A stretch of 48,611 nucleotides of DNA from assembly GCF_003024805.1 (NCBI RefSeq), contig NZ_PUEC01000026.1, positions 1 through 48,611 on the forward strand. The letters are read 5' to 3'. This DNA is from Duncaniella muris. GTDB lineage: Bacteria > Bacteroidota > Bacteroidia > Bacteroidales > Muribaculaceae. Both the position numbers and the translations under genes were made by a program. Positions 6,015 through 39,098 of the stretch are shown here, in pieces. Within the stretch, counting starts at the first letter, position 1. Each line of letters begins with the position of its first letter. Under the pieces are notes generated by a model, which had not been told where the DNA came from, searched no databases, and was given only the letters and a program-made list of their open reading frames with translations.

Positions 6015-6018
6015 CAAC

Positions 6019-6063
6019 TAATCTGACTAATTGGACTAATTAGCCCAATTGGCCTAATCCACC
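6019..6063 (+). repeat. Five tandem 9-bp units, AT-rich type
   Basis: Directly after the dut stop are TAATCTGAC, TAATTGGAC, TAATTAGCC, CAATTGGCC and TAATCCACC, an uninterrupted period-9 array filling nearly the whole dut-TPR gap. The same unit family recurs at 8698-8744 in the same operon. Confidence 0.85.
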
Positions 6064-6077
6064 CAACCCCGCCCCAA

Positions 6078-7826: not shown

Positions 7827-8704
7827 CCCACCAAAACCGCCGCCGCCTCCCGCGGCTCCAAACTCTCGGCCTCCTTCTGATAACACTCACAGCCCTCCTG
7901 GCCTCATCATGCCGCTCCGGCCGCAACGCAGCCGGAAGCAACACCGGCGACTACAGCCAAAACACAGGCAAAACCCTCTCGCAGAGCCAGCTGAAAACCA
8001 TGCTCAACAGCCTCAGCGACAGCTACGGCACCTGGAGTGACGTAAAAATTCCACTAACCCTCCGCCTCAAAAGCCCCAAAAAGATCAGCATCGGAGGCAC
8101 CCTCACCATGCAGCGCGACCGCAGCGTCCACCTCTCCCTCCGCTTCCTCGGCATGGAAGTAGCCTCACTCATGGTCACCCAGGACAGCATCTTCGCCCTC
8201 TACAAACTCGAAAGGCTCTACTTTGCCGAAAGCATCTCCGACCTGCTCGGAGGCTTCCCTGCCACAGTCGGCAACGTCCAGGACCTCCTGCTCGGACGCG
8301 CCTTCATCCTCGGCGACACCCCCCTGGCACCCTCACGCTGCACCCTCGCCGGCACCCCCGAAAACTGGACCATCACCCCATCAGGCACCCCCTCAGGCAT
8401 AGCCTACACCTTCACCATCTCCACCCCCACAGGCAATCTTGAAAGCCTGACAGTCACCCCCGCCACCCGCAAACCGCTCACAGCCGAATACACCGACTTC
8501 GCCACCGGCCCCGTCGGCCCCTTCGCCGCCACCACCCTCCTCACCGCTGCCGGAGGCAAAACCACCCTCAGCGCCCAGCTTGAACTCAACGCCCGACGCG
8601 CCGAATGGAACACCGGAGCCACCAAAAACTGGTCCACACCCAAAGGCTACACCCGCATCAAAGCCGCCGACATCCTCAAAATAGTCACCAAAATGGCCAA
8701 TTAG
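7823..8704 (+). CDS. DUF4292 family lipoprotein
   Basis: The 293-aa protein has an N-terminal basic stretch, a hydrophobic core and the lipobox LLASSC (Cys about residue 30), followed by a Gly/Asn-rich linker. The remainder is predicted beta-rich (LRLKSPKKISIGGTLTMQRDRS, FLGMEVASLMVTQDSIF, LYFAESISDLLGG), like the Bacteroidetes DUF4292 family, whose fold recalls LolA/LolB lipoprotein carriers; that comparison is inference. It starts inside the TPR stop codon. Its own stop codon TAG lies inside a 9-bp repeat unit (8698-8706). The next gene encodes an EnvC-like protein, suggesting a shared envelope role. Confidence 0.8.
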   Translation: MTHQNRRRLPRLQTLGLLLITLTALLASSCRSGRNAAGSNTGDYSQNTGKTLSQSQLKTMLNSLSDSYGTWSDVKIPLTLRLKSPKKISIGGTLTMQRDRSVHLSLRFLGMEVASLMVTQDSIFALYKLERLYFAESISDLLGGFPATVGNVQDLLLGRAFILGDTPLAPSRCTLAGTPENWTITPSGTPSGIAYTFTISTPTGNLESLTVTPATRKPLTAEYTDFATGPVGPFAATTLLTAAGGKTTLSAQLELNARRAEWNTGATKNWSTPKGYTRIKAADILKIVTKMAN

Positions 8705-8744
8705 CCTAATCAGACCCATCTCAGTCTAATTAGCCCAATCCAAT
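8698..8744 (+). repeat. Second 9-bp unit array, overlapping a stop codon
   Basis: Units CAATTAGCC (8698-8706), TAATCAGAC (8707-8715), CCATCTCAG (8716-8724), a 2-bp interruption, TAATTAGCC (8727-8735) and CAATCCAAT (8736-8744) match the array at 6019-6063. The first unit contains the TAG stop of the DUF4292 gene. Confidence 0.75.
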
Positions 8745-8760
8745 CAAAACCCGCCACCCA

Positions 8761-25190: not shown

Positions 25191-25568
25191 ATGATGAAAA
25201 AACTTTTGTTTTCAGTGCTTATAGCCGCCAGTGTGGTTTCGGTCTCATGCACGAAGCGCGTGGAGGGTATTCTGCGCGAGGAGCCTGCCGAGATTTCAAA
25301 GAAGGAGGCTGTGAAGATCAGATCTTATTATGAGGAGCAGCTCGCTACGGCTGAGGCTCTGCTTAACGATGGCAAGACGGCTGAGCTTGAGGCTTACCTG
25401 AAGGGCCCGGATTGGGCTCTTGCCGAGCGCTGCCACAGCAAACTCACCCAACTCCCCCCGGAACTGGCTACAGAGATGAATATAGCCGGTCTGGAGATAA
25501 ATTTCGTGGCCTTTGTCAATAAGGTTATCGAGAAGGGTATTCCTCTGAGGGAAGTGGAGGAGGAGTGA
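25191..25568 (+). CDS. Small putative lipoprotein
   Basis: The 125-aa protein starts with MMKK, a hydrophobic core and the lipobox SVSC (Cys20). The mature part is short, charged and helical (EEPAEISKKEAVKIRSYYEEQLATAEALLNDG, then PPELATEMNIAGLEINFVAFVNKVIEKG). I do not recognise a family with confidence. Either of the two tandem ATGs could be used. No promoter box is visible in the 27 bp after the secA terminator stem. The gene ends directly at the start of the 9-bp inverted repeat array, whose first bases GAGAGGCTTGGGAG follow the TGA. Confidence 0.7.
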   Translation: MMKKLLFSVLIAASVVSVSCTKRVEGILREEPAEISKKEAVKIRSYYEEQLATAEALLNDGKTAELEAYLKGPDWALAERCHSKLTQLPPELATEMNIAGLEINFVAFVNKVIEKGIPLREVEEE

Positions 25569-25770
25569 GAGGCTTGGGAGAGCTTTTTTGAGAGCTCTGG
25601 GAGGCCTTTTTGAGAGCTCTGGGAGAGCTGGGAGAACTGGGAGTTCTGAGAATCTTTTTTGAAAGCTCTGAGAGCTCCCAAAGCACCCAAAGCTCCCAGC
25701 TCTCCCAGAGCTCCCAAAGCTCCCAGAACTCCCAAAGCTCCCAGAACTCCCAAAAACTCCCAACTCTCCC
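25569..25770. repeat. Large inverted array of 9-bp repeats
   Basis: The left arm is G-rich on the plus strand. It has two copies of a longer block (CTTTTTGAGAGCTCTGGGAG type) and then period-9 units CTGGGAGAG, CTGGGAGAA, CTGGGAGTT and CTGAGAATC (25619-25654). After a TTTTTTGAAAGCTCTG spacer, the right arm is the complementary C-rich type: AGAGCTCCC (25671-25679) then ten more units such as AAAGCTCCC and AGAACTCCC alternating to 25770, one of them 10 bp. The two arms can pair into a long imperfect hairpin. The right arm translates as repeated SSQ if read in frame, but this is probably not coding. Confidence 0.9.
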
Positions 25771-25813
25771 CAAAAATAAAAACTTCAAACCTATCCTAAA
25801 AAATTCAATTATC

Positions 25814-26371
25814 ATGCAATCTTCCTTTCTTCCTCAACGTGGTCATTACAAAAGCCTGATCGTCTATCAGAAGGCTGAGTGTATCTATGATGTCACTTAT
25901 ATGTTTGCCCACCGTTTTCTGTCAAGAGGTGACAGGACTGTCGATCAGATGATTCAGGCGGCGCGATCGGGCAAACAGAATATCGCTGAGGGCTGTGCGG
26001 CTTCGTCTACTTCACGCGAGACTGAAATCAAGCTTTATAATGTCGCCAAGGCGAGCCTCCAGGAGCTGTTGGCGGACTATGAGGACTTTCTGCGTGTCAG
26101 AAGCCTGTGCCAGTGGGAACTGTCTGACCCTCGAAGCATACGCACCAGAAAGGGATGCTCTGAGCACTGCGATTCCGCTTTCTATCGCAATTCACTGCAA
26201 AATTCAAGCGAGGAGACTATCGCAAATATAGCCATAACTCTGATTCATCAGGTGGATATTCTTCTCCACCGTCTCATCGAACGGGCCAAAAAGAATTTCC
26301 TTGAAGAAGGCGGTATCAGAGAACAAATGACCCGCCACAGACTGGAATATCGCAAAAACAATCCAAAATAA
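25814..26371 (+). CDS. Four-helix-bundle (23S rRNA intervening-sequence/S23-type) protein
   Basis: The 185-aa protein begins at ATG 25814 (MQSSFLPQRGHYKSL). The frame is open further upstream through the 9-bp array, but that stretch is SSQ repeats and unlikely to be translated. The core LIVYQKAECIYDVTYMFAHRFL, QMIQAARSGKQNIAEGCAAS, ETEIKLYNVAKASLQELLADYEDFL is the four-helix bundle family first described inside 23S rRNA intervening sequences; related small proteins include the Avd factor of diversity-generating retroelements. A C-terminal extension (ETIANIAITLIHQVDILLHRLIERA) resembles the suffix domain of long versions. Function is unknown. GC content is visibly lower than in neighbours. A 14-bp terminator stem follows. 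Confidence 0.85.
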   Translation: MQSSFLPQRGHYKSLIVYQKAECIYDVTYMFAHRFLSRGDRTVDQMIQAARSGKQNIAEGCAASSTSRETEIKLYNVAKASLQELLADYEDFLRVRSLCQWELSDPRSIRTRKGCSEHCDSAFYRNSLQNSSEETIANIAITLIHQVDILLHRLIERAKKNFLEEGGIREQMTRHRLEYRKNNPK

Positions 26372-38876: not shown

Positions 38877-39098
38877 TCAGTCATCGTCATCATCGTGATG
38901 ATGATGGTGCTTCTTGTGCTTCTTATGTTTCTTATGCTTTTTATGATGGTGATGGTCGCCTCCGTCAGGGAAGTCATATTTATATTCATGCTCCATGCCC
39001 CAATGGGTTCTCACGGTTCCGCAAGAACTTGTCAGGCCTGACCCGACAAAGGCTAACAGAAGCCCGATAATATAAGCGAAAAATCTCTTGCGTCTCAT
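38877..39098 (-). CDS. Small His/Lys/Asp-rich lipoprotein
   Basis: The 73-aa reading frame encodes a basic start, a hydrophobic core and a lipobox ending LTSSC (Cys26). A short GTVRTHWGMEHEYKYDFPDGG segment comes next, then a tail of His and Lys clusters (KKHKKHKKHKKH) ending in five His and five Asp. The signal peptide plus composition make a real gene likely in spite of its size; the tail could bind Zn, Ni or Cu. I recall similar His-rich mini-lipoproteins in other Bacteroidales but no function. No matching -7 box was found upstream. The KKH run comes from short DNA repeats and may vary in length. Confidence 0.72.
   Translation of the reverse strand: MRRKRFFAYIIGLLLAFVGSGLTSSCGTVRTHWGMEHEYKYDFPDGGDHHHHKKHKKHKKHKKHHHHHDDDDD

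What the first reader, a model, noticed from the sequence alone, without database searches (positions are those of the whole stretch)
25569..26371. Inverted 9-bp repeat array joined to a four-helix-bundle gene: a candidate undescribed repeat-protein unit
About 200 bp consist of a G-rich 9-bp array followed by its complementary C-rich array (eleven units, 25671-25770). They can fold into a very long hairpin, and immediately downstream is an IVS/S23-type four-helix-bundle gene of lower GC than its neighbours, closed by a 14-bp terminator. Four-helix-bundle proteins of this group sit inside rRNA insertions and include the Avd partner of diversity-generating retroelement reverse transcriptases, so a link to structured nucleic acid is plausible. 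The period of 9 equals that of the AT-rich arrays at 6 and 8.7 kb. It could be a mobile or amplifying unit in which the protein acts on the repeat hairpin.
Basis: partly seen in the sequence, partly recalled or inferred. Interest (0 to 1): 0.78.

Follow-up and report, generated by a model that had tools for sequence, protein, structure and literature searches.

The report
Repeat arrays paired with cognate gene
In many Bacteroidales bacteria a small four-helix protein gene is flanked by arrays of a 9-base repeat whose sequence follows the version of the protein, with more such arrays elsewhere in the genome, which points to an undescribed kind of protein-repeat system of still unknown function.

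Summary
The inverted 9-bp array (25566-25775) and the four-helix gene (25814-26371; TIGR02436 plus TIGR04258 'suffix') are real, and the link holds across the family. Of 106 TIGR04258 loci, 90 have a period-9 array within 300 bp (66 upstream, 60 downstream), against 3 of 29 plain four-helix genes. The unit differs between loci (CTCCCANNN, GTCNGACNN, CTCNGAGNN, TTAAGGNCC and others), matches on both sides of a gene, and follows the protein, not the genome: unlinked genes 75-80% identical share it, co-resident paralogues do not. The same units occur as dispersed arrays, more often in genomes with a matching gene. Of 49 CTCCC-type sites, 31 face a start codon in one orientation and 3 in the other. 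This resembles REP-RAYT logic, but the protein is no transposase, and my paper searches found no description. I infer that the protein reads its cognate array, probably as RNA; how arrays spread is unknown. Against: two of three unit predictions failed, some arrays have no matching gene, two comparable array slots were not shared by a relative, and structure prediction was never available.

The parts
25566..25643 (+). G-rich arm of the array (GGGAGANCT-like units, with T-runs; a 22-nt register dominates)
   Evidence: TRF and the repeat finder; period 9 at 25619-25643
25662..25775 (+). C-rich arm: period-9 array, about 11 CTCCCANNN units, complementary to the G arm; ends 39 nt before the start codon
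25814..26371 (+). Four-helix-bundle protein gene (185 aa, stop included in range), TIGR02436 then TIGR04258 suffix at residues 134-181
   Evidence: dN/dS 0.013 against sister L033
26386..26439 (+). Inverted repeat after the gene, terminator-like; stem GAGGGAAAGCT resembles the array unit (by eye)
   Evidence: I3, 23-nt arms, 87%
6015..6066 (.). Period-9 array of another unit class (AATTGGNCT); the genome's single TIGR04258 gene has a different unit
8695..8745 (.). Short period-9 array of the AATTAGNCN class, below TRF score 36
   Evidence: by eye

Best explanation
This is one member of a family of gene-repeat pairs in Bacteroidales. A solitary gene for a four-helix-bundle protein with a TIGR04258 suffix is embedded between arrays of a 9-nt unit, and further arrays of the same unit lie elsewhere in the genome, mostly between genes and, for some unit classes, often just before start codons. 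SHOWN: linkage, period specificity, shared unit on both sides, covariation of unit with protein, dispersed copies, quick change of the array between sister species and, for the CTCCC class, a preferred orientation toward the next gene. INFERRED: the protein recognises its own array; an oligomer (homopentameric in the related S23p) reads repeats at a fixed 9-nt register, which would explain why the period is constant while the sequence drifts with the protein; for the CTCCC class at least it acts on the transcribed leader (RNA), changing translation or stability of array-bearing mRNAs, its own included. NOT SHOWN: binding, any effect on expression, and how arrays are copied to new sites. Sub-estimates: genuine functional linkage 0.95; cognate recognition 0.8; RNA rather than DNA as ligand 0.55; protein needed for spread of arrays 0.5.
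For: Linkage 90 of 106 against 3 of 29 plain TIGR02436, Fisher 8e-14. TRF-free autocorrelation, lags 5-15: lag 9 in 50 of 139 upstream and 53 of 137 downstream flanks, against 1 of 102 and 1 of 131 far flanks. Up and down arrays of one locus share the unit: 6-mer cosine 0.53 against 0.073 between loci, 0 of 10000 permutations, 43 loci. Gene pairs at sites without a shared flank: cosine 0.02-0.03 below 50% protein identity, 0.605 at 75-80% (20 of 22 above 0.3), while 19 same-genome pairs average 0.020. Nine unit classes (100 of 114 loci) need 25 changes on the protein tree; 300 shuffles 59-74. Pattern hits: CTCCC class in 9 of 9 genomes with such a gene, 3 of 48 others (arrays beside the gene included); TTAAGG hits away from the gene's contig in 7 of the 9 gene-bearing genomes with hits. 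Orientation 31 against 3, p = 8e-7. Both arms at 13 of 15 CTCCC-class gene loci (my count) against 7 of 47 dispersed sites, p = 7e-7. Purifying selection on the gene while the array is rearranged in the sister species. A C-terminal topoisomerase-type zinc ribbon on three family members fits nucleic-acid binding.
Against: Units predicted from arrays inside one protein linker were matched by a resident gene in 1 of 3 genomes (G205 yes; G230 and G034 no). Arrays without a known matching gene exist: G017 and G196 among genomes without a suffix gene, and others such as G105, G055 and G095; this genome itself holds AATTGG-class arrays without such a gene. For the GTCNGAC class the genome link is weak (8 of 11 against 8 of 48), and gene-bearing G258, G222 (period 10) and G049 gave no hit. 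GTCNGAC and CTCNGAG arrays often border or run into the end of the upstream ORF (8 of 19 within about 10 nt, my count) rather than a start codon. Two G298 array slots could be compared in colinear G309 and neither has a TRF array there, though one gap holds a short degenerate repeat by eye; this speaks against a conserved regulon. 16 of 106 genes have no array by the criterion used, and in the second set 8 of 40 have none. Mutual-information signals in the suffix are confounded by descent.
Confidence: 0.55

Rival explanations
1. Selfish, REP-RAYT-like element acting on DNA: arrays are non-autonomous copies spread by the suffix protein together with a host enzyme (for example via hairpins in single-stranded DNA); the array-gene-array block is the autonomous copy. 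Position and orientation before genes reflect only where insertions are tolerated.
For: Gene flanked by its repeat, dispersed copies, repeat class follows protein class. Lineage-specific array positions: an occupied G298 slot of 341-349 bp against 43 bp in G305; neither of two comparable G298 slots has a TRF array in G309. Arrays of different units in the same protein linker in different species (by eye). Some suffix proteins carry a topoisomerase-type zinc ribbon.
Against: No transposase, recombinase or RT domain match in the proteins scanned. No target-site duplications could be read, since the compared flanks are only about 70-85% alike. The orientation bias 31 against 3 needs extra selection. 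No boundary motif was seen at 24 sites (by eye).
Confidence: 0.25
2. Homing into arrays: arrays are pre-existing host repeats, and the gene is a passenger that inserts into arrays of a preferred unit.
For: Gene sits inside arrays with the same unit on both sides; arrays exist in a few genomes without a detected matching gene.
Against: Among 19 genomes without a suffix gene, the four unit patterns hit 1, 1, 1 and 0, so arrays of these classes are not a general host feature. Gene loci of the CTCCC class have both arms more often than other arrays (13 of 15 against 7 of 47).
Confidence: 0.12
3. Neutral slippage or chance: low-complexity DNA expanded by replication slippage, unrelated to the gene.
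For: The array differs strongly between sister species whose gene is 96% identical.
Against: Enrichment beside suffix genes, at period 9, on both sides, with one unit; dispersed copies; covariation with protein at unlinked sites.
Confidence: 0.03
4. Array as plain transcription terminator or mRNA-stabilising hairpin, with the protein unrelated.
For: Strong hairpin in the window; terminator-like inverted repeat after the gene.
Against: Does not explain why the unit sequence follows the protein, nor arrays with one arm only before start codons.
Confidence: 0.05

Closest known systems
REP sequences with RAYTs (REP-associated tyrosine transposases; passages of PMC2817692 and PMC3733652 seen)
   Same: A gene flanked on both sides by its repeat, dispersed copies of that repeat, repeat class follows protein class, palindromic or hairpin-forming repeat.
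   Different: Protein is a four-helix bundle with no transposase match; repeat is an array of a 9-nt unit, not a 20-40 nt palindrome with a GTAG-type head.
23S rRNA intervening sequences with S23p/IVP (PF05635; passages of PMC4990558 seen)
   Same: Related four-helix protein domain; gene bordered by sequences that can pair.
   Different: Not in an rRNA gene; arrays are tied to the TIGR04258 suffix and were found at 3 of 29 plain family members.
Avd of diversity-generating retroelements (passages of PMC10053308 seen)
   Same: Four-helix protein said there to resemble PF05635 (cd16375), linked to a system with structured nucleic acid.
   Different: No reverse transcriptase found among the neighbours of the window gene that were scanned; template and variable repeats were not sought.
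TRAP and similar ring proteins that bind evenly spaced RNA repeats in leaders (recalled, no call)
   Same: Proposed logic: oligomer reading repeats at a fixed spacing near a start codon.
   Different: No homology claimed; different spacing; binding untested.
NCBIfam TIGR04258, four helix bundle suffix domain
   Same: The window protein is a member.
   Different: The model's name gives no function; no paper in the library holds its accession or name as searched.

Membership tests
TIGR04258 four helix bundle suffix proteins | Suffix model above its curated cut-off | tested here: met
   74.9 bits against 40, residues 134-181
TIGR02436 / PF05635 four-helix (IVP/S23) proteins | Model above curated cut-off | tested here: met
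   TIGR02436 33.3 against 24; PF05635 32.7 against 33.8 for the protein alone, 33.9 with its neighbours in the frame
23S rRNA intervening sequence element | Gene lies inside a 23S rRNA gene | tested here: not met
   Only Rfam match in the window is a tRNA at 1081-1162; neighbours are SecA and DUF5689 genes
REP-RAYT (REPtron) | Gene flanked by its repeat on both sides, with dispersed copies | tested here: met
   Family level. At the window itself the array is upstream only; the downstream hairpin is not a TRF array
REP-RAYT (REPtron) | Y1/HUH tyrosine transposase (Pfam Transposase_17) | tested here: not met
   Pfam and NCBIfam scans give no transposase match; significant matches are the four-helix and suffix models
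Diversity-generating retroelement | RT, template repeat and variable repeat next to avd | tested here: inconclusive
   No RT among the window neighbours scanned; template and variable repeats were not sought; neighbours at other loci were not scanned for RT beyond the nine proteins
Known anti-phage defence | PADLOC model match | tested here: not met
   0 families for P0001 and L214
Ring-forming RNA-repeat-binding protein (works-like only) | Oligomer binding evenly spaced RNA repeats | not testable with these tools
   Structure prediction was busy at every attempt; no binding assay

The most novel reading that the evidence does not exclude
The gene locus is the master of a trans-acting RNA system: its hairpin supplies the arm (GGGAG) complementary to the single CTCCC arms that sit, sense strand, in front of start codons elsewhere, and the four-helix-suffix protein is the chaperone or ring that pairs repeat with repeat at a 9-nt register. 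In palindromic classes every array can pair with every other. Each protein clade would define its own orthogonal repeat 'address' and regulon, carried from genome to genome as one block.
Probability: 0.2. Interest if true: 0.93.

Novelty: categorically new. Interest (0 to 1): 0.82.

Why it matters
If right, a common but unexplained gene family of Bacteroidales is one half of a protein-repeat pairing with many specificities, several in one genome. It offers a ready set of cognate and non-cognate pairs for testing how a small helical protein reads repeated nucleic acid, a way to predict which genes carry the address of which protein, and an explanation for a class of short period-9 repeats in these genomes. 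It would also give a first concrete function to a branch of the IVS/S23/Avd four-helix proteins.

Tried and rejected
Chance or slippage alone: rejected. A general property of four-helix IVP genes: rejected by the plain TIGR02436 control (a first version of that script, used a wrong ORF filter, kept only 6 loci with 1 array, and was replaced; three of the 29, L220-L222, look like copies of one gene). A genome-wide habit of the host rather than of the gene: rejected by same-genome paralogues with unrelated units (two searches gave the same picture before duplicates were removed). A phage or plasmid gene: no relative in the phage set or the viral contigs and one record in the plasmid set (a 568-kb Prevotella nigrescens replicon with only a weak array by the gene). 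A defence system by name: PADLOC empty for two proteins, although some family members lie in type I restriction operons. A solved relative: the PDB profile search gave one match, E 0.86, not useful. A universal start-codon position: it holds for many CTCCC sites and many TTAAGG sites (start within 30 nt in 10 of 19, my count), less for GTCNGAC and CTCNGAG. Conserved array positions in related genomes: not found in the few slots compared. Structure prediction with A2 (60 of the 79 sequences then usable): every attempt answered 'busy', so no fold search was run. Specificity residues by mutual information are exploratory only.

Full report
WHAT IS IN THE WINDOW. Between a small lipoprotein-like ORF (25191-25568) and a gene at 25814-26371 lie a G-rich repeat arm (25566-25643) and a C-rich period-9 arm (25662-25775) that are complementary and fold far more stably than shuffles (z -8.7; the shuffles do not keep the periodicity). 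The gene encodes 185 residues with a TIGR02436 four-helix domain and a TIGR04258 suffix. It is the only TIGR04258 match in the genome. Neighbours are secA upstream and DUF5689 genes downstream. Against the sister genome of L033 the gene has 21 nucleotide differences of 555 and one amino-acid change (dN/dS 0.013), while the array next to it is rearranged and homogenised to another CTCCC variant.

THE LINK IS FAMILY-WIDE. TIGR04258 was found in 175 of 297 genomes sampled from the host's family (the 30 best-scoring loci fetched), and 80 relatives were fetched from named genomes (the best 80 of 256). I used 106 loci, the window and its sister included (5 duplicates and L001 dropped). A TRF array (score 40 or more) of period 9 or a multiple is centred within 300 bp upstream in 66, downstream in 60, on either side in 90. 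In the flanks 1-3 kb away it occurs in 8 loci over 136 kb and 13 loci over 155 kb. A second set of 40 loci, mostly from multi-copy genomes and partly overlapping the first (L114, L135, L136, L139), had 20 upstream and 20 downstream; 32 of 40 on either side by my count from the listing. Some loci scored as misses have arrays of period 10 (L004) or short ones. A TRF-free autocorrelation test over lags 5-15 gave lag 9 in 50 of 139 upstream and 53 of 137 downstream flanks, lag 10 in 2 and 3, other lags none; in far flanks lag 9 appeared in 1 of 102 and 1 of 131. The control, plain TIGR02436 genes without the suffix from the same family of genomes, had 3 of 29 upstream and 0 of 29 downstream (one of 30 loci unusable, L220-L222 look like one gene).

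THE UNIT BELONGS TO THE GENE. Arrays on the two sides of one gene share their unit (43 loci). Upstream arrays end a median 39 nt before the start (81 loci) and downstream arrays begin a median 11 nt after the stop (71 loci). Units differ between loci. After removing four near-identical proteins, 114 loci with arrays were compared. At sites with no homologous flank detected, unit similarity is 0.02-0.03 below 50% protein identity, 0.15 at 65-70%, 0.25 at 70-75%, 0.605 at 75-80% (22 pairs) and 0.544 above that (15 pairs). A Mantel test gave 0 of 2000 permutations as high. Nineteen pairs of genes in the same genome averaged 0.020, the highest 0.161. On a protein tree, nine unit classes (100 loci; 14 loci in smaller clusters left out) need 25 changes against 59-74 in 300 shuffles, and the TTAAGG class is one side of a branch (a quick tree with 47 open forks of 111). 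'Different site' means that no homologous flanking ORF was detected, and short contigs can hide one.

DISPERSED COPIES. Patterns of three units were sought genome-wide; the same patterns read backwards gave 0 in every genome (57 and 60 genomes). In one search, with gene classes entered by me from earlier outputs, genomes with a known matching gene had hits in 9 of 9 (CTCCC), 10 of 10 (CTCNGAG), 8 of 11 (GTCNGAC) and 9 of 10 (TTAAGG); other genomes in 3 of 48, 3 of 49, 8 of 48 and 5 of 49; genomes without a suffix gene at E 0.001 in 1, 1, 1 and 0 of 19. These hits include arrays beside the gene itself, not every gene copy in every genome was inspected, and a few gene-class calls rest on weak arrays. 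L124 in G265 and L126 in G287 would move those genomes into the gene-bearing CTCCC and TTAAGG groups, giving 10 of 10 and 9 of 11 (my recount from the labels). Away from the gene: TTAAGG hits lie on other contigs in 7 of the 9 gene-bearing genomes with hits and only on the gene's contig in G265 and G232. The window's genome has two further CTCCC arrays, on contigs C4 and C5. One 20-kb stretch of Marseilla An819 has seven array sites, two of them beside the gene. The C5 array lies in frame in the C-terminal linker of a protein encoded next to a PglZ-domain response-regulator gene. Of 21 relatives whose linker could be read, 3 hold arrays of other units (G034, G230, G205) by eye. The matching unit was then found at a resident gene in G205 but not in G230 or G034.

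OCCUPIED AND EMPTY SLOTS, CONTEXT, ORIENTATION. A 257-bp array between two conserved genes in G298 (gap 341-349 bp) faces a 43-bp gap without array in G305 and, in G309, a 124-bp gap with at most a short degenerate repeat. A second slot comparable in G309 has no array. Of 49 CTCCC sites dominated by one arm (places listed for G298, G299 and G303, extra arrays seen near them, and the own genome), with CTCCC read as the sense strand, a gene start follows within 150 nt in 31 and lies on the other side in 3; the other side is a gene end in 38 (p 8e-7). These 49 include the two arrays beside the gene in G298. Start distances have a median of 22 nt, 16 of 31 at 10-25 nt (my count from the rows). Of 38 GTCNGAC, CTCNGAG and TTAAGG sites, 16 lie between a gene end and a gene start. 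By my count, TTAAGG arrays have a start within 150 nt in 15 of 19 and within 30 nt in 10 of 19; in the other two classes 8 of 19 border or run into the end of an ORF. Genes here are longest-ORF calls, not annotation, and ORFs were cut at array edges. CTCCC-class gene loci have both arms in 13 of 15 (my count), dispersed sites in 7 of 47 (test). Overall, arrays resemble their own reverse complement more than their reverse or complement (0.237 against 0.056 and 0.012; 84 of 114 loci); for the longest single array alone the contrast is smaller (0.132 against 0.063).

PROTEIN CLUES. Three family members (L208, L209, L214) carry a C-terminal topoisomerase-type zinc ribbon (PF01396, E 1e-8 to 1e-9). 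No significant enzyme-domain match was found in the proteins scanned. The alignment of 60 sequences (of 79 usable) keeps many polar residues invariant (D40, R41, D44, Q45, Q48, S52, Q55, N56, E59, E84, D88, D91, Q146, E170). Positions that separate unit classes best include suffix residues 150, 152, 158 and 159, a hint confounded by descent. The homopentameric ring of a related S23p is taken from a passage of PMC4990558.

WHAT IT IS. The pattern of flanking repeat, dispersed copies and covariation is the one reported for REPs and RAYTs (passages of PMC2817692; of PMC3733652). By that logic it works like a REP-RAYT pair, but it is not a member: the protein is no transposase. Membership of IVS elements is not met, and DGR membership was only partly tested. 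The constancy of the 9-nt period under a drifting unit, and the strand bias before start codons, make me favour recognition of array RNA by an oligomer over DNA transposition. This is inference.

NOVELTY. Searches of the paper library for the family accession and names, for four-helix proteins with repeats, for period-9 or nonamer repeats in these bacteria, for IVP families and for RAYTs showed no description of this pairing in the titles and abstracts listed; searches matched thousands of papers of which only the first 15 and 8 were listed. Most subscription papers are not in that library.

Noticed in passing
L051, L066, L021, L006, L007, L017: Some suffix genes sit in type I restriction-modification operons. 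At L051 HsdM, HsdS and HsdR domains surround the gene; at L066, L021 and L017 an HsdS neighbour was confirmed; L006 and L007 look alike by eye.
   Followed up: partly
L208, L209, L214: Suffix proteins with a C-terminal Zn_ribbon_Top1; the flanks of L209 look period 8 rather than 9 by eye.
   Followed up: partly
L004: Arrays of period 10 (GGTCGGACAA) on both sides of the gene: the register may change in a clade.
   Followed up: no
G017: Genome with CTCCC and CTCNGAG arrays but no suffix-gene match even at E 1; it has plain TIGR02436 genes.
   Followed up: partly
G153 contigs C102 and C62 (apparently the same genome as G297, that of L033): Assembly contigs break at the array in the linker site, so draft genomes may under-count arrays.
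   Followed up: no
L250:9884-9946: A different repeat (GGAGTTAGAA-like) that matches many places in genome G307, some as inverted pairs.
   Followed up: no
L107: A gene with TTAAAG-type arrays in a contig titled Kiritimatiellae: transfer outside Bacteroidota or a binning error.
   Followed up: no
window 38908-38945: Short period-9 array TGCTTCTTA in a low-complexity stretch that is probably coding (by eye).
   Followed up: no
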